Part shown: piece after piece, positions 27,215 through 45,541 of the stretch | Layout of the letters: each line of letters opens with the position of its first letter | Numbering within the stretch: the stretch's first letter is position 1 | Source: Accumulibacter sp. | Lineage (GTDB): Bacteria; Pseudomonadota; Gammaproteobacteria; Burkholderiales; Rhodocyclaceae | Assembly (NCBI RefSeq): GCF_023806625.1 | Contig: NZ_JAMTDX010000011.1 | Coordinates: forward strand, 139,596-203,595 | Direction: 5' to 3' | Length of the DNA: 64,000 nt | Position numbers and translations under genes: made by a program | The notes under the pieces: generated by a model | Told to the model about the DNA's origin: nothing | The model's database searches: none | The model's input: the letters and a program-made list of their open reading frames with translations, nothing else

Positions 27215-28891
27215 ATGTCTTACTCGGCGTTCGTCCAGGCGCGCGATTTCCTTCTCGCCCATCGTACCGACTACGAGACGGCGTACCGCGACTTCAAGTG
27301 GCCACAGCTGACCGACTTCAACTGGGCACTCGATTATTTCGACGTGATGGCTGCCGGCAACGATCGGCTGGCTCTCTGGGTGGTCAACGAAGACGGTTCC
27401 GAGCAGAAGATGTCCTTCGCCGAGATGGCCAAGCGCTCGAATCAGGTGGCCAACTGGCTGCGCGCGCAGGGTGTCCGGCGTGGCGACCGGATCCTGATGA
27501 TGCTCGGCAACGAGGTGCCTCTCTGGGATACGATGCTCGCTTCGATCAAGCTCGGTGCGGTCCTCTCGCCGGCGACGACGCTACTCGCGCCGGACGATCT
27601 CCGCGACCGGATCGAGCGCGGCCAGATCCGTCACGTGATCATCGGCCACACGCAGGCGGACAAGTTCGCGGAGCTGGCCGGTGACTACACGCGGATAACC
27701 GTCGGTGGCGCCGTCGACGGCTGGCTGTCGCTCGAAAAGGCCTATCTCGAGTCGAGTGACTTTCTGCCCGACGGGCCGACCAGGGCGACCGACCCGCAAC
27801 TGCTCTACTTCACCTCGGGGACGACCTCGAAGCCCAAGCTCGTCCTGCACAGCCAGCAGAGCTACCCGGTCGGGCACCTGTCGACGATGTACTGGATCGG
27901 CCTGCAGCCCGGCGACGTGCACTGGAACATCAGCTCGGCCGGCTGGGCCAAGCACGCGTGGAGCTGCTTCTTCGCCCCCTGGAACGCCGGTGCAACGGTG
28001 TTCATCTACAACTACTCGCGCTTCGCCGCCTCAGCGATCCTCGAAACGCTCGTCCGCTGCTCGGTGACCACGCTTTGCGCGCCGCCGACCGTCTGGCGGA
28101 TGCTGATCCAGGAAGACCTGAAGAAGTATCCGGTCAAGGTCCGCGAGCTGATCGGCGCCGGAGAGCCGCTCAATCCCGAAGTCATCGACCAGGTCAAGGA
28201 AGCCTGGGGAATCACGCTGCGCGACGGCTTCGGACAGACCGAGACGACGGCACAGGTCGGCAACTCGCCGGGACAGGTGGTCAAGCTCGGCTCGATGGGC
28301 AGACCGATGCCCGGTTATCAGGTGCGCCTCGTCGACATCGACGGCAACGTTTCGGACGAAGGCGAGATCTGCCTCAGCCTGTCGCCGCGACCGCTCGGAC
28401 TGATGATCGCCTACGACGACGACCCCGACAAGACTAGCGAAGTGATGCGCGACGGCTTCTATCACACCGGTGACACGGCCGCGGTCGACGCCGACGGCTA
28501 CATCACCTACGTCGGCCGGGCCGATGAAGTGTTCAAGGCCTCCGACTACCGGATCAGCCCGTTCGAGCTCGAAAGCGTGCTCATCGAGCACGACGCGGTC
28601 GCCGAGGCGGCGGTCGTGCCGAGTCCGGACCCGCTTCGTCTCGCCGTTCCGAAAGCCTTCCTGACGCTGCGCGCCGGTTACGAGCCGAGTCGCGAACTGG
28701 CCCGTGACATCTTCGTCTTCCTGCGCAGCCGGCTTTCACCCTACAAGCGCGTCCGGCGGATCGAGTTCGGCGAGTTGCCGAAGACGATCTCCGGGAAGAT
28801 CCGCCGCGTCGAACTGCGCAAGGGCGAGCAGGAGCGGGCCTCCGCCCCGCGTGGAGCACTCGAGTTCCACGAAGACGACTTCAAGTTCTGA
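27215..28891 (+). CDS. Acyl-CoA synthetase, medium-chain type
   Basis: 558 residues from ATG 27215, with AAAGGAG upstream. ANL motifs: FTSGTTSKPKLV phosphate loop, DGFGQTETT adenine motif, YHTGDTAAVDADGYI and GRADEVFKASDYRISPFELE. The C-terminal Lys is in PKTISGKIRR. The opening (DFKWPQLTDFNWALDYFD) is that of the acyl-CoA synthetase medium-chain group, which activates butyrate to medium-chain or aromatic acids. It could supply acyl-CoA, but its separation by 72 bases from the lipid cluster makes a direct role uncertain. Upstream, 26937-27214 holds no gene; TACAAT at 27007 may be its -10. Confidence 0.92.
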   Translation: MSYSAFVQARDFLLAHRTDYETAYRDFKWPQLTDFNWALDYFDVMAAGNDRLALWVVNEDGSEQKMSFAEMAKRSNQVANWLRAQGVRRGDRILMMLGNEVPLWDTMLASIKLGAVLSPATTLLAPDDLRDRIERGQIRHVIIGHTQADKFAELAGDYTRITVGGAVDGWLSLEKAYLESSDFLPDGPTRATDPQLLYFTSGTTSKPKLVLHSQQSYPVGHLSTMYWIGLQPGDVHWNISSAGWAKHAWSCFFAPWNAGATVFIYNYSRFAASAILETLVRCSVTTLCAPPTVWRMLIQEDLKKYPVKVRELIGAGEPLNPEVIDQVKEAWGITLRDGFGQTETTAQVGNSPGQVVKLGSMGRPMPGYQVRLVDIDGNVSDEGEICLSLSPRPLGLMIAYDDDPDKTSEVMRDGFYHTGDTAAVDADGYITYVGRADEVFKASDYRISPFELESVLIEHDAVAEAAVVPSPDPLRLAVPKAFLTLRAGYEPSRELARDIFVFLRSRLSPYKRVRRIEFGELPKTISGKIRRVELRKGEQERASAPRGALEFHEDDFKF

Positions 28892-28963: not shown

Positions 28964-29623
28964 ATGAGTCTCCATCTTCTGAAGCCGCGCTTCCAGGGCG
29001 TGCTGCGCCCGGTCGTTCGCCAGATCCATGCCTCGGGCGTTCGCGCCAACCAGGTCACCGTGTTCACCTGTGCAGCGTCGATCGCCGTCGGTGGCTGGCT
29101 GGTCGTTGCGGCACGGTCCGGGCAGTTCGACAGCTTTCTGCTGCTGCCGGTCTGGTTCGCCTTGCGCATGGCGCTGAATGCGATCGACGGGCTGCTCGCG
29201 CGCGAGTTCGCCCAGGAGTCGGTGCTCGGCGCGTATCTCAACGAGCTGTCCGACCCGCTGTCCGACGCCACACTCTACCTGCCCTTCGTCTTTCTGCCCG
29301 GCGGAGCCGGTGCTGCCGTGCTCGCGGTGATCTTCCTGTCGGTCGTCTCCGAGATGGCCGGACTGCTCGGCCAGCTTTCCAGCGGCCAGCGACGTAACGA
29401 CGGCCCGATGGGCAAGAGCGACCGGGCACTGGTCTTCGGCGCGCTCGGGCTGCTCGTCGGCACGGGAATCAGCCCCGGCCCGTGGCTCACCTGGGTCGTC
29501 GCCGGGGTCGCGTTGTTGCTCGGCCTGACCATCGTCAACCGCGTCCGCCGCGGGGTCGCCGCCAGCGATCGCTTACTCGACCTCGGCGGACAGCGCCAGG
29601 AAGATCGACGTGCGCCGCGCTGA
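28964..29623 (+). CDS. CDP-alcohol phosphatidyltransferase family protein with altered metal motif
   Basis: 219 residues with about six membrane helices. The family joins a CDP-activated lipid to an alcohol using the motif DxxDGxxAR...GxxxDxxxD, whose four Asp bind two metal ions. Here residues 72-76 read NAIDG, and after G89 the series is AYLN (N93), ELSD (D97), PLSD (D101). The first and third Asp are therefore Asn, with E94 and D101 as possible substitutes. AR at 79-80 is kept. This may mark a subfamily with a different acceptor or donor. The next gene starts inside its last 14 bases. First gene of the proposed lipid operon. Confidence 0.85.
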   Translation: MSLHLLKPRFQGVLRPVVRQIHASGVRANQVTVFTCAASIAVGGWLVVAARSGQFDSFLLLPVWFALRMALNAIDGLLAREFAQESVLGAYLNELSDPLSDATLYLPFVFLPGGAGAAVLAVIFLSVVSEMAGLLGQLSSGQRRNDGPMGKSDRALVFGALGLLVGTGISPGPWLTWVVAGVALLLGLTIVNRVRRGVAASDRLLDLGGQRQEDRRAPR

Positions 29624-31358
29624 GCAGTCGGAGTTCACCACTCACGACGGCAGCCGGCTGTTCTACCGCTACTGGCCGCCGCTTCGCGAGACCGACGTCA
29701 CCCGCGCGATCCTGCTCTTCCATCGCGGGCACGAGCATTCCGGCCGGCTTCAGCACGTCGTCGACGAACTCCGCCTCGACGACTTCGCGTTCTTCGCCTG
29801 GGATGCCCGAGGCCATGGGCGATCGCCCGGCGAGCGCGGCGACAGCCCCAGCTTTTCGGTGCTCATCCGGGACATCGAGCGCTTCGTCCGGCACGTCGGC
29901 GAAAGCTACGGCGTCACCCCCGAAAACATGGTGGTCATCGGGCAGAGCGTCGGCGCCGTGCTGGTCGCGACCTGGGTCCACGACTACGCTCCTCGCCTGC
30001 GCGGCGTCGTACTCACCGCGCCGGCATTCAGCGTCAGACTCTACGTGCCGCTCGCCCGACCGGGCCTCGGCTTGTTGCAGCGCGTCTTCGGCAACCTGTT
30101 CATCAACTCGTACGTCAAGGCGAAATTCCTGACCCGCGATACCGCGCGGATCGCCTCGTACGACAGTGATCCGCTGATCACCCGGGCGATCTCGGTACGT
30201 GTGCTGCTCCGCCTGCTCGATGCCGGCGAGCGGATCGTCGCCGACGCCCAGGCGATCCGCGTGCCGCTGCTGCTGCTGATCTCCGGCAAGGACTGGGTCG
30301 TCCACCGCACCCCGCAGGAGGTGTTCTTCGAGCGACTCGGCTCCCCGCTCAAGGAACGCCACCTGCTGCCGGACTTTCTCCACGACACACTCGGCGAGCG
30401 TGACCGGGAGATCGCCCTGGCGCACATTCGCGGCTTCGTCGGCCGGCTTTTCGCCGCGCCGCAGGCGGCGGATTCACTGCTCGACGCCGACCGCCGCGGG
30501 CACACGCACGACGAGGAAGTCGCCCTCGGCCGGCCACTACCCCCGCTATCGGCAGCCAACCTGAAATACACCGCGACCCGTCTCGCAATGCGCACGCTCG
30601 GCAGGCTTTCCGGCGGCATCCGTACCGGACTCGAAACCGGCTTCGACTCGGGAAGCAGCCTCGACTACGTCTACCGCAACCAGGCAGAGGGGCGACTGCT
30701 GATCGGCCGGCTGATCGATCGCCTGTACCTCGATTCGATCGGCTGGCGCGGTATCCGCGAGCGCCGCAGGCACCTCGCCGCGGCGCTGCTGCATGCAGCA
30801 CGGGCACTCCGGGCAGCCGGCCAGCGGCTACGCATCGCCGACATCGCCGCCGGGCATGGGCGCTACCTGCTCGAAGCGGTCGCCGAACTTCCCGAACGAC
30901 CCGAGTCGATCGTCCTGCGCGATCTTTGCGAAGTCAACGGCGAACGCTGTCGCTCGCTGATCGGGCAACTCGGGCTCGACGAGATCGCCCGCTTCGAGTG
31001 CGGCGACGCCTTCGACGAGGCACAGCTCGCCGCTCTCGCCCCACGGCCGAACCTGATCGTCGTCTCGGGCCTTTACGAGCTGTTCAGCGAAAACGACCGG
31101 GTAAGCGGTTCGCTGCGCGGCGTTGCCCGTGCCATCGACCGCGGCGGCTACCTGATCTGCACCAATCAGCCATGGCACCCGCAGCTCGAACTGATCGCCC
31201 GCACGCTGACCAGCCACCGTGACCACCAGCCGTGGATCATGCGCCGACGGACTCAGGCGGAACTCGACGATCTTCTGCGCACGGCCGGCTTCGCGAAGGT
31301 CGAGCAATGGATCGACGATTGGGGGATATTCACCGTCTCGCTGGCCCGCCGCCTCTGA
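29610..31358 (+). CDS. Alpha/beta hydrolase fused to class I SAM methyltransferase
   Basis: 582 residues from a GTG start with AGGAAG upstream. Residues 10-300 are a hydrolase/lysophospholipase-like domain with WDARGHGRSPG, nucleophile GQSVGA (Ser113), acid in SGKDWVV and His in DFLHDTLGE. A linker (about 300-365) leads to a methyltransferase domain (365-582) with SAM motif I IADIAAGHGRYLL near 409 and a Rossmann acidic loop LRDLCEVN. The final strand region (WIDDWGIFTVSLA) fits the fold. Both domains look catalytically intact. The neighbours make a lipid substrate likely: deacylation plus methyl transfer. It overlaps both neighbouring genes. Confidence 0.87.
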   Translation: MRRAEQSEFTTHDGSRLFYRYWPPLRETDVTRAILLFHRGHEHSGRLQHVVDELRLDDFAFFAWDARGHGRSPGERGDSPSFSVLIRDIERFVRHVGESYGVTPENMVVIGQSVGAVLVATWVHDYAPRLRGVVLTAPAFSVRLYVPLARPGLGLLQRVFGNLFINSYVKAKFLTRDTARIASYDSDPLITRAISVRVLLRLLDAGERIVADAQAIRVPLLLLISGKDWVVHRTPQEVFFERLGSPLKERHLLPDFLHDTLGERDREIALAHIRGFVGRLFAAPQAADSLLDADRRGHTHDEEVALGRPLPPLSAANLKYTATRLAMRTLGRLSGGIRTGLETGFDSGSSLDYVYRNQAEGRLLIGRLIDRLYLDSIGWRGIRERRRHLAAALLHAARALRAAGQRLRIADIAAGHGRYLLEAVAELPERPESIVLRDLCEVNGERCRSLIGQLGLDEIARFECGDAFDEAQLAALAPRPNLIVVSGLYELFSENDRVSGSLRGVARAIDRGGYLICTNQPWHPQLELIARTLTSHRDHQPWIMRRRTQAELDDLLRTAGFAKVEQWIDDWGIFTVSLARRL

Positions 31359-32707
31359 GCCGGCCCCCGCTGGTCGACGCCCAGGCTGGACCGGACGAAC
31401 CCCGCCCGTGGCGGCGCTCGCTCGCCTGGCTGGTCTTCCTCGGTCCGTTCTTCTTCGTGAGCTACGGTTTCGCGACCTGGGTCAGCAGCCAGCGCGCCGA
31501 GGTCGGCTTCATCGTCTTCGACTGGGAGCACCACATTCCGCTGCTTCCCTGGACGATCCTTCCCTACTGGCTGATCGACGCGCTCTACGGCGTCTCGCTG
31601 TTTCTCTGCGCGAGCCGGCGCGACCTCGATACGCATGCCTGGCGCCTGCTGCTGGCCCAGCTGATCGCCGTCGCCTGCTTCCTGGTCTTTCCGCTTCGCT
31701 TCAGCTTCGCCAGGGACGAAGTCGGCCTCACCTGGCGCTGGCTGTTCGACCTCCTGGCGAGCTTCGACAAACCCTTCAACCAGGCGCCTTCGCTGCACAT
31801 CGCGCTGCTCGTCATCCTCCTGCAGGTCTATCTGCGCGCCGTTCCGCGCGCCTGGCACCTGCTCGTCCACGGTGTGGCGCTGCTCATCGGCGTGTCGGTG
31901 CTGACGACCTGGCAACATCACTTCATCGACGTCCCGACCGGAGTCTGGCTCGGCTGCCTGGTCGTCTGGCTGTTGCCCGACGGCCATCTCCCGCTGTTCC
32001 GGCGGGCCAGGATCCGCCGGGATCCGCGCCGGCTGCGTCTCTCGCTGGCCTACGCAGGAGCGGCCTTGCTGATCGCTTGCCTGGCCGCCGGGCTCGCCGG
32101 CGGCTGGCTCTGGCTGCTCTGGCCCGCGGCTTCGCTGGCCCTCGTCGCGTTGATCTACGCCTTCCTCGACGGCGCCTCGTTCGGCAAGCGCGCCGACGGC
32201 TCGTTGCCGGGCGCGCTCGGCGTGCTCTTCGGCCCCTACCTGCTCGGGGCCTGGCTCAACTCTCGCTGGTGGACGCGCCGGCACCCGGCGCCCGACTCGC
32301 CGGCCCCCGGATTGCTGATCGGCCGCATACCAGGCCACGGCGAAGTCGGGCGAGACCGGAGCGGGGCGATCGTCGACCTCTGCGCCGAGCTCCCCTGCCC
32401 GACATCGGGCGTTCCCTACTCGCTCGTTCCGCTGCTCGACCTCGTCGAGCCTGAGGTGGGCGAGATCGAACGCGCGGTCAGAGCGATCGACGCCGCGAAC
32501 CCTGCCGGACCGGTGCTCGTCTGCTGCGCGCTGGGTCTCGCGCGCAGCGCGCTGGTCGCGGCCGCCTGGCTGATCCACGCCGGAATCGCTTGCCGGCCCG
32601 AAGCGGCGGTCGCCCACGTGCGCGCGGCGCGCCCGCGAGTCGTCCTCGGCGCGCGGGAAGTGAAACTGCTGCACCAGTGGTGGCAGCACCGGGCGGATGA
32701 TCGCTGA
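31307..32707 (+). CDS. PAP2 phosphatase fused to dual-specificity phosphatase
   Basis: 466 residues from ATG 31307, inside the previous gene (52-base overlap), with AAGG upstream. Residues 40-330 form a membrane PAP2 domain of several helices, with PSLH and TTWQHHFIDVPTG matching the second and third PAP2 motifs. A soluble C-terminal domain (about 340-466) has the Cys-phosphatase loop CALGLARS (Cys407, Arg413, CX5R) and an upstream Asp in IVDLCAELPC. This pairs a lipid phosphate phosphatase with a PTPMT1-like activity. It could dephosphorylate the product of the phosphatidyltransferase at 28964. Confidence 0.86.
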   Translation: MDRRLGDIHRLAGPPPLSRPPLVDAQAGPDEPRPWRRSLAWLVFLGPFFFVSYGFATWVSSQRAEVGFIVFDWEHHIPLLPWTILPYWLIDALYGVSLFLCASRRDLDTHAWRLLLAQLIAVACFLVFPLRFSFARDEVGLTWRWLFDLLASFDKPFNQAPSLHIALLVILLQVYLRAVPRAWHLLVHGVALLIGVSVLTTWQHHFIDVPTGVWLGCLVVWLLPDGHLPLFRRARIRRDPRRLRLSLAYAGAALLIACLAAGLAGGWLWLLWPAASLALVALIYAFLDGASFGKRADGSLPGALGVLFGPYLLGAWLNSRWWTRRHPAPDSPAPGLLIGRIPGHGEVGRDRSGAIVDLCAELPCPTSGVPYSLVPLLDLVEPEVGEIERAVRAIDAANPAGPVLVCCALGLARSALVAAAWLIHAGIACRPEAAVAHVRAARPRVVLGAREVKLLHQWWQHRADDR

Positions 32708-33659
32708 ACTGCCGCCGTTGGCTCTGAGCGGATCCCCGGGGCAGGTCGTCGTCGCGATCCTCGCCCTGCTCGTCTTCGCCTCGCTGACCGCTCGGTTGCT
32801 GCGCTTCACGCTGGCCCGCCGGCAGCCGCACGCGGTGATCGACAACCTGGTCAGCCGCATCAATGCCTGGTGGGTCATCGCACTCGTCGTCGGGTTGGCG
32901 CTCGCCGCCGGGAGAGACGGCGTGACGCTGCTCTTTGCCGCGGCATCGCTGCGCGCCCTCGGCGAGTTCTTCCCGCCCCCGCCGGTCGATTCGGGCCTGC
33001 GCAAGCTGCGCATCGGGGGCTTCCTGATCGTCGTCACGCTGCAGTACGGCTTCGTCTGGAACGGCAGCCTGGTCGCCTACGGCGTGTTCATTCCGCTGCT
33101 CGCGGCGTTCGCTCTGCCGCTGGCCAAGCTCTGCGCCAGCGATGCACGGCTCTGGCCGACCGGGATGCGCGACCTGCGCCTCGGCCTGCTGTTCTGCGTC
33201 TGGGGAATCTCGCACGTCCCGGCGCTCTTCGCGCTTCCCGGTCAGCCAGCCGACGGCCACGCCTGGCTGGTGGTCTTCCTGCTGCTCGTCGTTCAGTTGA
33301 GCGACGTGCTCCAGTATGTCTGGGGCAAGCTCGCCGGACGGCATGCGATTGCGCCACGGATTTCGCCGGGCAAGACCGTCGAAGGAACGATCGGTGGTCT
33401 GCTGAGCGCCAGCGCAGTGGGCGCGGCGATCTCTGGGGTGACGCGTTTCACTCCCGGCGAGGCGGCCATCGTCGCGCTGCTCCTGGCGATTCTCGGCTTC
33501 CTCGGCGGACTGACCCTCTCGGCGATCAAGCGCCAGCGCGGAGTCAAGGACTGGGGAAGTCTGATTCCGGGCCACGGTGGAATGCTCGATCGGCTCGACT
33601 CACTCTGCCTCTCGGCACCGGCCTTCCATTACCTGCTGTGTTCCTCTCTGCTCGCCTGA
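32697..33659 (+). CDS. Second CdsA-type phosphatidate cytidylyltransferase
   Basis: 320 residues with about eight membrane helices. The C-terminal CdsA signature is present: LSDVLQYVWGK, RISPGKTVEGTIGG and LIPGHGGMLDRLDS. It makes CDP-diacylglycerol from phosphatidate and CTP. A separate, shorter cdsA sits at 44702 in the housekeeping block, so this copy is a paralogue tied to the cluster. The start overlaps the phosphatase by 11 bases. Its N-terminal 90 residues are longer than those of the housekeeping enzyme and carry two extra helices. Confidence 0.88.
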   Translation: MIAELPPLALSGSPGQVVVAILALLVFASLTARLLRFTLARRQPHAVIDNLVSRINAWWVIALVVGLALAAGRDGVTLLFAAASLRALGEFFPPPPVDSGLRKLRIGGFLIVVTLQYGFVWNGSLVAYGVFIPLLAAFALPLAKLCASDARLWPTGMRDLRLGLLFCVWGISHVPALFALPGQPADGHAWLVVFLLLVVQLSDVLQYVWGKLAGRHAIAPRISPGKTVEGTIGGLLSASAVGAAISGVTRFTPGEAAIVALLLAILGFLGGLTLSAIKRQRGVKDWGSLIPGHGGMLDRLDSLCLSAPAFHYLLCSSLLA

Positions 33660-33669
33660 GCGCGGCCGA

Positions 33670-34275
33670 TCACCCGCGCTTGCGCCCGAGCCGCCCGACC
33701 AGCCAGCCGACGACCACGCCGCCGAGGCCGGCGCCGATCGCCGCGTACCAGAGCGCGGCCCTGGCCTCCTTGAGCAGCGAGTTGGTGAACACGTTCGACG
33801 AGAGGTGCAGCGCGACGACCTTCCATTCGCCGTCGATCTTCGCGCTCGTCGAAGTCCAGTTGGAGTTCAGGCTGAACGGCCCACGGGCAACCGGGAAGAA
33901 TTCGTCGACCATCGTCCCGTCGGCGACGGCGACCTCGCCGCCGCCGAAGAAGCGTGCCGGGGCGCCGACCTTGGCCTTCGTCAGATAGCGGTCGAGGATC
34001 CGCTGTTCGCCCCTGACCATCCGGTGGTAGTAGGCACGGATCTCGTCGTGCCCGCGCGAGACTTCGCCGTTTAGCCAGGTGACCGTTGCCGCGCGATCCA
34101 TCTGGGCGATCATCCGCTCGACGTCCTGCGCGTTGATGCTCGCTTCCATCTCGCGGAACAGAGCGAGCAGCGCCTGGCGATCGGCGCCATGTGGATCCGT
34201 GTCGGCAGCCCTGACCACGCTCGCCGAGCTGACCAACAGAACCAGCAGAGACAGGAGGTTCAGGAGTGGACGCAT
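33670..34275 (-). CDS. SnoaL/NTF2-like exported protein with C-terminal membrane anchor
   Basis: 201 residues from ATG 34275, preceded by AAAGGAAC; an ATG five codons earlier overlaps that site and is less likely. There is a signal peptide (MRPLLNLLSLLVLLVSSASV, cleavage near VRA) and then a cone-shaped NTF2-like domain (about 28-155) containing ALFREMEASINAQDVERMI and a GEWKVVALHLS strand. A single hydrophobic helix (about 172-192, AAIGAGLGGVVVGWLVGRLG) is followed by a basic tail. Such domains bind small ligands or serve as enzymes; none is implied here. It is convergent with the lipid operon and downstream of the methyltransferase gene. Confidence 0.78.
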   Translation of the reverse strand: MRPLLNLLSLLVLLVSSASVVRAADTDPHGADRQALLALFREMEASINAQDVERMIAQMDRAATVTWLNGEVSRGHDEIRAYYHRMVRGEQRILDRYLTKAKVGAPARFFGGGEVAVADGTMVDEFFPVARGPFSLNSNWTSTSAKIDGEWKVVALHLSSNVFTNSLLKEARAALWYAAIGAGLGGVVVGWLVGRLGRKRG

Positions 34276-34363
34276 GTGAGTTCCTTTCATCGGCGCGATG
34301 GCCAAAAGCATCGATTTCCGGGCAAGCGAAATCCTCGCAGACTTCCTCGCAGGCTGTTCATGA

Positions 34364-43503: not shown

Positions 43504-44702
43504 GTGGCCAAGGCGGCGAGCCGATCGTCGGCGACTGCCCGCGCCAGGCGGTCAGCGGCGAGAACCTCGCCCAGCGACCGGGGCGAGCAGTTGGCCGGGC
43601 AACGATCGAGCACTTCGGCAATCAGCCGGGGAATCGCCGTGAACGCGATCCGCCGCTCGAGAAACGCCTGGACGGCGACCTCGTTCGCCGCATTGAGGGT
43701 CGCCGGCGCACAGCCTCCCTGCGCCAGCGCGCGGTAGGCGAGGCCGAGACACGGGAAACGCCCGTGGTCGGGTTTCTCGAAGTGCAGCGCAGCCACCCGG
43801 CAAAGGTCGAGCGGCTCGACGCCAGCAGCGATGCGCTCCGGATAGCCGAGAGCGTGCGCGATCGGCGTGCGCATGTCGGGGTTTCCGAGTTCGGCGATGA
43901 CCGAACCGTCGACATACTGGACGAGCGAGTGCACGACGCTCTCGGGATGGATGAGCACCTGGATGCGCTCTGCAGGAACGTTGAACAACCAGTGCGCCTC
44001 GATGACCTCGAGACCCTTGTTCATCATCGTCGCCGAATCGACCGAGATCTTCGGCCCCATCACCCAGTTCGGGTGCGCGCAGGCCTGCTCCGGGCTCACT
44101 GAAGCGAGATCGCCGGCATCGGTCAGCCTGAATGGCCCACCCGAGGCGGTCAGGAACAGTGCCGACACGCCGCTGTCTCCGAGGTTGCCGGAGTAGCCGG
44201 GCGGCAGCGACTGAAAAATCGCGTTGTGCTCACTGTCAATCGGCAACAGCGTTGCGCCGTGATCCCTGACGGCGCGCATGAAGAATTCGCCGGCCATGAC
44301 CAGCGCTTCCTTGTTCGCCAACAGCACCTTCTTCCCGGCCACCACCGCGGCCAGCGCCGGCGGCAGGCCGGCGGCCCCGACGATCGCGGCCATCACCGTG
44401 TCCACGATCGGCAGCTCGACCATCCTGATCAGTGCGTCGGGACCCCAGGACACGCTCGTCGGACAGCCGGCAGCGGCGAGCCCGGCGGCCAACCGGGCAG
44501 CCAGCGCCTGATCGCCGACGACCGCGTGTTCCGGCCTGAACTCGAGGCACTGTTCAAGCAGACGCTCCGCCTGCCGGTTGGCGCACAGCGCGACGATCGC
44601 GAAGCGATCGGGATGACGGCGAACGACGTCGAGCGTATTCACGCCTATCGATCCGGTCGAGCCGAGAATCACCAGACTCTGCACCCCCCCTCTCCCAGCC
44701 AT
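43500..44702 (-). CDS. dxr: 1-deoxy-D-xylulose 5-phosphate reductoisomerase
   Basis: 400 residues from ATG 44702. NADPH motif [17 protein letters not shown] at the start; [12 protein letters not shown] and [13 protein letters not shown] carry the metal and substrate ligands, and [21 protein letters not shown] is the catalytic lid region. It performs the first committed step of the MEP isoprenoid pathway, supplying precursors for UppS encoded two genes upstream. The ATG overlaps the cdsA stop (TGATG). Confidence 0.97.
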
Positions 44703-45541
44703 CAGTGCCGCGCCAGGAGCCAGACCAGCGCCACCAGTGGCAAGGTGGACGTCAGGCTGTCGATACGGTCGAGCACGCCGCCATGACCAGGCAGCACGTT
44801 GCTGCTGTCCTTGAGGCCGGCCTGTCGCTTGACGAGCGACTCGAAGAGGTCGCCGACGATGCTCATCGCGGTCAGCCCTGCGAGGAGGGCAATCAGCAGA
44901 GGCCAGTCGCCTGCCAGATTCGCCGGCAGTCTCGGAGACACGAGCAGGCCATAGACGATCACGCACAGCCCGCCGCCGATCGCGCCCTCCCAGGTCTTGC
45001 CGGGGCTGATCGTCGGCGCCAGCTTGTGCGCGCCGAAGCGCCGCCCGGCGAAATACGCCCCGATGTCCGCCAGCCAGACGACGGCCATGATCGCCAGCAG
45101 ACCCAGCGGGCCGACTTGGCGGAGCTGGACGAGGGCGAGCCAGGCGGGGAGGATGACCACTGCCCCGGTCAGCACGCCGAGCGCCGGGGAGTGCGACAAC
45201 GGCCAGCGCCGCCTGAGCCAGAGCGGCGCGACCACCACCCAGAACGCGGCAGCGGGCAGATAGAACAGGGCCCCGGTGGGCCATCCCGCTGCCGCCGAGT
45301 CCGCTTGGAGCCCGACCGCAGCGGGGTCGAGGACTGAAACGGCCGTGCACACGATCAGCAGGGCTGCCGCGAGCATGCTGCGCAAAGGCTCGCTGGCAGT
45401 CATCAGCCCTCCCCACTCCCAGGCCGCCACCGCGGCCACCGCGCTGACGAAGACCAGCCAGCCGAGTGGTGGCAGGAAGAACAGCGCGAGGAGGAAGGCG
45501 GCAAGGAGGAAGACCGCGGTGATGACCCGGGTTCTAAGCAT
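44702..45541 (-). CDS. cdsA: Phosphatidate cytidylyltransferase (housekeeping copy)
   Basis: 279 residues with about eight membrane helices. The C-terminal CdsA signature is intact: [28 protein letters not shown] and [15 protein letters not shown]. It makes CDP-diacylglycerol for all phospholipid headgroups. It overlaps uppS by eight bases. The location between uppS and dxr marks it as the general enzyme, in contrast to the paralogue at 32697. Confidence 0.96.

What the first reader, a model, noticed from the sequence alone, without database searches (positions are those of the whole stretch)
28964..33659. Four overlapping genes that may form an undescribed phospholipid pathway
A CDP-alcohol phosphatidyltransferase, hydrolase-methyltransferase fusion, PAP2-DSP fusion and a second CdsA overlap by 14, 52 and 11 bases. 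They give a logical route: CdsA2 makes CDP-DAG, the transferase attaches an alcohol phosphate, the phosphatase trims it, and the fusion methylates or deacylates. The housekeeping cdsA is elsewhere (44702), so this set is dedicated. I recall similar sets in other proteobacteria but no assigned product.
Basis: partly seen in the sequence, partly recalled or inferred. Interest (0 to 1): 0.75.

Follow-up and report, generated by a model that had tools for sequence, protein, structure and literature searches.

The report
Ynb/Arc1-type dedicated phospholipid gene set
These four overlapping genes are a relative of the E. coli ynbABCD operon and, very probably, of a Pseudomonas cluster that helps cells survive membrane-cutting toxins from rival bacteria; they look like a private phospholipid production line whose product is still unknown.

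Summary
The four genes are real, overlap and are co-inherited, but the set is not undescribed. It is E. coli ynbABCD (34-55% identity) in the order A-C-D-B. In Pseudomonas and many relatives it has two more genes, a PlsC-like acyltransferase (P) and a small membrane protein (M): A-C-D-M-P-B. That fits PA2541-PA2536, arc1A-F, tied in print to survival of type VI attack and lipase toxins (PAO1 sequences not compared). I found no product in print. New here: (1) YnbA has Asn for Asp at two positions of the CDP-alcohol transferase signature in 121 of 121 loci; 58 of 58 readable non-YnbA controls have Asp. It keeps two arginines proposed to bind the acceptor's phosphate in PI-phosphate synthase. (2) A-B-P occurs without C and D in 8 of 10 genomes with YnbA but no YnbC. 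(3) The window is a variant without P and M but with a SnoaL-like gene, which never shares a locus with P (0 of 126). Best reading: a dedicated pathway making a non-housekeeping phospholipid from CDP-DAG and a phosphorylated alcohol, used against phospholipase damage.

The parts
28964..29623 (+). YnbA-type CDP-alcohol phosphatidyltransferase with signature N72xxD75GxxA79R80...G89xxxN93xxxD97; R154 and R193 align with the acceptor-phosphate arginines of PI-phosphate synthase
29610..31358 (+). YnbC: monoglyceride-lipase-like alpha/beta hydrolase (S113, D228, H258; triad roles assigned by me) fused to a SAM methyltransferase (PF12147)
31307..32707 (+). YnbD: PAP2-type membrane domain fused to a dual-specificity (CX5R) phosphatase; start 31307 (ATG) or 31319 (TTG)
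32697..33659 (+). YnbB: second CdsA-type CDP-diacylglycerol synthase
33670..34290 (-). S: SnoaL/NTF2-like protein, by eye exported with a C-terminal membrane helix; marks the locus variant without P (and, in 11 of 12 loci, without M)
   Evidence: start chosen by eye; Pfam matches of this copy are all below cut-off
27215..28891 (+). T: AMP-binding acyl-CoA synthetase-like gene 72 bp upstream, same strand; adjacent only in the window and two Accumulibacter loci, so probably a neighbour rather than part of the module
44702..45541 (-). the other (presumed housekeeping) cdsA, for contrast

Best explanation
The genes form a Ynb/Arc1-type module: a dedicated side branch of phospholipid synthesis, most likely used to remake or armour the membrane when phospholipase toxins attack it. 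SHOWN here: gene identity, co-inheritance, conserved catalytic residues. SHOWN by others: E. coli YnbB makes CDP-DAG in vitro but cannot supply bulk lipid; loss of P. aeruginosa arc1A sensitises cells to lipase effectors. INFERRED, step by step: (1) YnbB turns phosphatidic acid (made by P where P exists, from the general pool here) into CDP-DAG. (2) YnbA moves the phosphatidyl group to an alcohol that carries a phosphate, because the two arginines proposed to bind that phosphate in PI-phosphate synthase are kept; the alcohol is not Ino1-made inositol phosphate and probably not glycerol-3-phosphate. Its metal site is rebuilt (Asn at D1 and D3; the invariant Glu94 next to D3 is a possible substitute ligand). 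(3) The phosphatase domain of YnbD, placed in the cytosol by hydropathy, removes that phosphate; its PAP2 domain, placed on the periplasmic side, acts on a second lipid phosphate. (4) YnbC cuts acyl chains from monoacyl lipids with its lipase domain and methylates the product or an intermediate with the other.
For: Identity to E. coli YnbA-D of 43, 34, 55 and 40% (A, B, C, D). All 27 YnbC genomes of 398 have YnbA, 26 a full YnbD. In 126 loci around YnbC: A 121, D 120, B 117, P 105, M 106. A, B and P side by side without C or D in 8 of 10 genomes with YnbA and no YnbC: a synthesis core. YnbA Asn/Asn in 121 of 121 loci and 9 of 10 further copies; controls 58 of 58 Asp/Asp once L310, itself a YnbA, is set aside. 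Best solved relatives of YnbA are PI-phosphate synthases (6h53, 6.9e-11); a PGP synthase (7drj) scores 0.063. R154 and R193, invariant in 52 of 52, align with R155 and R195 of 6h53, the numbers used for MtPIPS, where sulfate binding and mutants led the authors to propose that they bind the phosphate; K135, a possible ring contact, aligns with Gly. Ino1 is found neither in this genome nor in the E. coli control. The membrane-DSP half of YnbD occurs fused to a diacylglycerol-kinase domain (L242, L243). YnbC's hydrolase matches monoglyceride lipases (3.8e-19). arc1 is Gac/Rsm-controlled and mainly defensive (sections read); arc1A matters for lipase resistance (passages). The genome also has adjacent Arc3A/Arc3B-family genes.
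Against: No lipid product is known. PA2541-PA2536 were matched by gene order and printed annotations, not by aligning PAO1 sequences. The window variant lacks P, and the best of the genome's five PF01553 hits scores 63 bits against 243.5 or more for P members, so data from six-gene clusters may not carry over. Two Asn in place of metal-binding Asp could mean weak or different chemistry. A third contact in PI-phosphate synthase, S132, which touches the bound sulfate, is Gly in YnbA, so the phosphate pocket is not wholly kept. A ynbB knockout grows normally with unchanged MPIase; an effect shows only when Tam41p is expressed. In one study arc1A is auxiliary to arc3A; in the other no single toxin tested explained the Arc1 effect, and Arc1 loss also slightly helped the rival. 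The window's own YnbD matches a PAP2 model only weakly. Six of 126 loci lack D nearby; G149 has it about 40 kb away.
Confidence: 0.55

Rival explanations
1. Lysolipid repair: the set mainly clears and re-acylates the products of phospholipase attack (lysophospholipids, monoacylglycerol, lyso-PA) and rebuilds ordinary PE, PG and cardiolipin, making no new lipid. YnbC's lipase degrades monoacyl lipids, P re-acylates lyso-PA, YnbB returns it to CDP-DAG, YnbA and YnbD make PG.
For: Lipase protection by arc1A; monoglyceride-lipase-like YnbC; PlsC-like P; four arc1 products resemble PG-synthesis enzymes.
Against: YnbD does not replace PGP phosphatases; YnbB cannot replace CdsA for bulk lipid; YnbA is nearer PI-phosphate synthase than PGP synthase and lacks two signature Asp; repair alone does not need a methyltransferase; the window variant has no P.
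Confidence: 0.25
2. Glycolipid route: YnbB, perhaps with YnbA, makes a sugar-pyrophosphate-diacylglycerol such as GlcNAc-PP-DAG, the start of MPIase, as published for E. coli YnbB.
For: YnbB overproduction raises MPIase, and YnbB restores MPIase but not bulk lipid. A phosphate rather than a hydroxyl as attacking group might fit a rebuilt YnbA metal site (inference).
Against: A ynbB knockout keeps its MPIase level; ynbB scored in a transposon screen for cells making only ECA-PG, yet was then reported unnecessary for ECA-PG; the usual partners of YnbB are A, C, D and P, none of which matches a sugar enzyme.
Confidence: 0.1
3. Back-up phosphatidylglycerol or phosphatidylinositol synthesis with ordinary products.
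For: Domain content; sub-threshold NCBIfam hits to archaetidylinositol-phosphate and PI-phosphate synthases (54.8 bits against 180, 32.9 against 170).
Against: No Ino1 in this genome or in the E. coli control; the possible ring contact K135 is Gly; YnbD does not rescue a PGP-phosphatase-deficient strain.
Confidence: 0.07

Closest known systems
E. coli K-12 ynbABCD (b1408-b1411)
   Same: All four proteins, adjacent on one strand; same Asn/Asn signature in YnbA; no P or M found in the 20 kb fetched
   Different: Order A-B-C-D there, A-C-D-B here; no S gene in the 20 kb fetched
P. aeruginosa arc1A-F (PA2541-PA2536)
   Same: Six-gene set that fits the A-C-D-M-P-B order of the Pseudomonas loci examined here, by published annotation, not by sequence; defence phenotype published
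   Different: The window has no M or P and has S; regulation in the window untested
PI-phosphate synthase (RsPIPS, MtPIPS) and archaetidylinositol-phosphate synthase
   Same: Sequence family and two phosphate-site arginines
   Different: D1 and D3 are Asn; K135 and S132 positions are Gly; no Ino1 in the genome
DSP-lipid kinase fusions (probably the PRK12361 family)
   Same: Membrane segment plus DSP as in the C-terminal half of YnbD
   Different: Followed by a diacylglycerol-kinase domain; no PAP2 match

Membership tests
ynbABCD set | YnbA, YnbB, YnbC and YnbD homologues together on one strand | tested here: met
arc1A-F cluster | six genes; in the Pseudomonas loci seen here A-C-D-M-P-B | tested here: not met
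   A, C, D, B present in that order; M and P not found in the locus and no P-family protein among the genome's five PF01553 hits. A reduced relative at most
arc1A-F cluster | sequence homology of PA2541-PA2536 to these proteins | not tested
   PAO1 sequences not fetched; matched by order and by annotations printed in papers
arc1A-F cluster | Gac/Rsm-controlled, protects against type VI lipase effectors | not testable with these tools
   reported for P. aeruginosa
CDP-alcohol phosphotransferase (PF01066) | Pfam model over its cut-off | tested here: met
   34.9 bits, cut-off 22
CDP-alcohol phosphotransferase (PF01066) | signature D1xxD2GxxAR...GxxxD3xxxD4, called absolutely conserved in PMC4634129 | tested here: not met
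   D1 and D3 are Asn, D2 and D4 kept. A divergent branch of the family
PI-phosphate synthase | NCBIfam equivalog cut-off | tested here: not met
   32.9 bits against 170
PI-phosphate synthase | two acceptor-phosphate arginines | tested here: met
   R154, R193
PI-phosphate synthase | S132 and K135 acceptor contacts | tested here: not met
   both align with Gly in the YnbA profile
CdsA-type synthase | PF01148 and C-terminal signature (KD, GHGG, DRxD) | tested here: met
   185.5 bits, cut-off 24; these residues invariant in 35 of 35; the signature itself is recalled
Dual-specificity phosphatase | CX5R active site | tested here: met
   C403 and R409 (numbering of the copy in L182) invariant in 57 of 57; the window copy is just under the Pfam cut-off (33.1 against 33.5)

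The most novel reading that the evidence does not exclude
YnbA founds a branch of CDP-alcohol phosphotransferases with a rebuilt metal site that makes a phospholipid not yet described, with a phosphorylated non-inositol acceptor, trimmed by YnbD and methylated by YnbC; the lipid is a membrane armour against phospholipase toxins, spread through Pseudomonadota as a portable A-B-P core with add-on tailoring genes, and carried, without P, by most complete E. coli genomes.
Probability: 0.3. Interest if true: 0.85.

Novelty: new variant of a known kind. Interest (0 to 1): 0.58.

Why it matters
It joins two unsolved problems: four E. coli genes without an agreed function, present over at least 80% of their length in 4242 of 5426 complete E. 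coli genomes, and a Pseudomonas defence cluster of unknown chemistry. If right, Arc1-type chemistry can be studied in E. coli K-12, the search for the lipid has a named acceptor class (a phosphorylated alcohol), and a signature described as absolutely conserved has a large natural exception.

Tried and rejected
Inositol phospholipid: disfavoured (no Ino1; K135 and S132 lost). Back-up PG: disfavoured. An acyl-CoA synthetase (T) as part of the module: my first test used a wrong reading frame and was repeated correctly: 5 of 126 loci match, next to the set only in the window and two Accumulibacter loci, the other two being 26-28% hits far from the set. A YnbA fusion in L239: an over-extended frame; it is a lone copy with a degenerate signature. 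S as a substitute for P: never in one locus (0 of 126), but the YnbC tree needs only 3 switches between P and S, so weak. PADLOC: one weak hit, in the methyltransferase half (3.3e-5). Promoters and terminators: nothing usable. Mirror-tree correlations of 0.44-0.75, none reached in 1000 permutations, in 27 loci thinned from 107, show shared history, which linked genes have anyway.

Papers. Passages only: PMC6362211, PMC7413402, PMC8609368, PMC10881803, PMC7018664, PMC4634129, PMC2435150, PMC2246019, PMC8190622, PMC4066749, PMC5541441, PMC9603957, PMC12663445, PMC11888443. PMC8926400: abstract, sections 5 and 6, passages. All other papers were seen only in search listings; Sato et al. 2019 (YnbB) only as cited in reviews. 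'No product in print' rests on the searches, in a library that lacks most subscription journals, and on listings that were cut (40 of 157 shown).

Corrected on checking: a start at 31343 that I had considered for YnbD is no start codon; L034, unread, has the Asn/Asn signature; L310, a control, is a YnbA (286 bits).
Full report
OBSERVATION. The second overlap is 52 bases from the ATG or 40 from the TTG. The other cdsA is at 44702-45541 on the opposite strand.

IDENTITY. Against E. coli K-12 they are YnbA (43%), YnbC (55%), YnbD (40%) and YnbB (34%). In E. coli the order is A-B-C-D; 4242 of 5426 complete E. coli genomes hold at least 80% of that stretch in one place.

CO-INHERITANCE. A is present in 121, D in 120, B in 117; some misses lie at contig ends. 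In 398 Pseudomonadota genomes YnbC is in 27; YnbA (E at most 1e-50) in 37, including all 27; full YnbD (E at most 1e-100) in 26, all within the 27. Twelve further genomes had weaker YnbA-profile matches (1e-21 to 1e-13), not counted, and 17 had matches to half of YnbD only. Distribution is patchy: 20 of 250 genomes of the window's order, and none of the 7 other genomes listed for its family; 8 of 274 of its class, 5 of them with E below 1e-100.

A LARGER MODULE. A PlsC-like acyltransferase (P, PF01553 but below NCBIfam cut-offs) lies in 105 of 126 loci and a small membrane protein (M, no family over cut-off) in 106, 102 having both. The commonest order is A-C-D-M-P-B (72 loci); other loci run A-B-P-C-D. 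M lies between D and P in 89 and elsewhere in the cluster, mostly next to D, in 16; the last, L034, is probably an orientation slip of my script. In L014 and L019 one open frame spans D and M. Of the 10 genomes with YnbA but no YnbC, 8 have A, B and P side by side; one has only pieces of A and B, one a lone degenerate A. So A-B-P looks like a core and C, D and M like add-ons. A SnoaL-like gene (S) is in 12 of 126 loci, never with P, and once with M. The window has S and neither P nor M. On a YnbC tree of 57 rows (of 121) the P/S state needs 3 switches, rows with neither left out, so the exclusion is suggestive only. None of the five PF01553 proteins found in the genome scores like the P family.

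YNBA. The published signature of CDP-alcohol phosphotransferases has four Asp, three binding metal and the fourth the likely base (PMC4634129, passages). In YnbA the first and third are Asn in 121 of 121 loci (120, L034) and in 9 of 10 further copies (the tenth has Cys and Asn). Control: of 106 PF01066 places in 36 genomes I examined 71, leaving out the window's own YnbA and 34 not fetched; 59 could be read with the strict pattern: 58 have Asp at both, and 1 (L310) has Asn at both and is itself a YnbA (286 bits); 12 could not be read. A second, distant Asn/Asn paralogue (50 bits) sits in the Xanthomonas locus L042. The closest solved structures are PI-phosphate synthases. YnbA R154 and R193 align with R155 and R195, proposed from sulfate binding and mutants to hold the acceptor's phosphate; S132 (sulfate contact) and K135 (possible ring contact) align with Gly. 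I infer a phosphorylated acceptor other than inositol phosphate, in a pocket that is only partly kept. Ino1 was not found in this genome, nor in the E. coli control.

YNBD AND YNBC. The two halves of YnbD occur apart: a PAP2_3 protein alone (L244, L245) and a membrane-DSP unit followed by a diacylglycerol-kinase domain (L242, L243). Averaged hydropathy puts the PAP2 motifs outside and the DSP inside (a rough inference). YnbC's hydrolase is closest to monoglyceride lipases; S113, D228 and H258 are conserved in 40, 41 and 41 of 41.

WHAT OTHERS FOUND. E. coli YnbB makes CDP-DAG in vitro but does not replace CdsA, and its overproduction raises MPIase. YnbD does not rescue PGP- or C55-PP-phosphatase-deficient strains. 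A ynbC insertion raised polyphosphate in one strain background; deletion in the Keio background did not. P. aeruginosa PA2541-PA2536 were named arc1A-F: Gac/Rsm-controlled, mainly defensive against B. thailandensis type VI attack, five of six products lipid-related, four related to PG-synthesis enzymes. A later study finds arc1A needed, in an auxiliary way, for resistance to lipase effectors. PA2541 is listed as an RsmA target with one binding site. Printed annotations: PA2536 probable phosphatidate cytidylyltransferase, PA2537 probable acyltransferase, PA2540 putative phospholipase. That fits A-C-D-M-P-B read from 2541 to 2536; that PA2541 is the transferase and PA2539 the phosphatase is recalled. 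PAO1 sequences were not aligned, so the Arc1 link is strong but indirect. The window's genome also carries adjacent members of the Arc3A and Arc3B families (PF10101, PF13163).

JUDGEMENT. The set is real, dedicated and partly known. I favour a private phospholipid pathway serving membrane defence; the acceptor, the product and the methylation step are unproven, and the defence role in this organism is carried over from a fuller cluster.

Noticed in passing
window 33670-34290 (-); L245 3736-4377 (-): SnoaL-like protein, by eye exported with a C-terminal membrane helix. In the 10 kb of L245 it sits near a lone PAP2 protein and a frame that reads like a fatty-acid desaturase (my reading), with no YnbA or YnbC match, hinting at its own link to lipid chemistry.
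   Followed up: partly
L042 15030-15683: A second, distant CDP-alcohol transferase with the same double Asn signature lies between M and P in the cluster of Xanthomonas bonasiae.
   Followed up: no
L014 12325-14106, L019 12218-14002: One open frame spans YnbD and the small protein M in Chitiniphilus, which ties M to YnbD.
   Followed up: no
G000 contig C37 11985-15604 (-): Adjacent DUF3999 and DUF2339 genes, the families of Arc3B and Arc3A, on a contig other than the window's.
   Followed up: partly
window 27215-28891 (+): AMP-binding acyl-CoA synthetase 72 bp upstream of the set; 91% and 89% identical matches lie in the same place in two Accumulibacter loci, and not next to the set in the other loci examined.
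   Followed up: yes
L242, L243: YnbD-like membrane-DSP half followed by a diacylglycerol-kinase domain: a phosphatase and a lipid kinase in one protein.
   Followed up: partly
L007, L012: Records titled Bordetella parapertussis are metagenome bins; L007 groups with unnamed betaproteobacterial bins on the YnbC tree, so the species label looks doubtful. L012 was thinned out of the tree.
   Followed up: no
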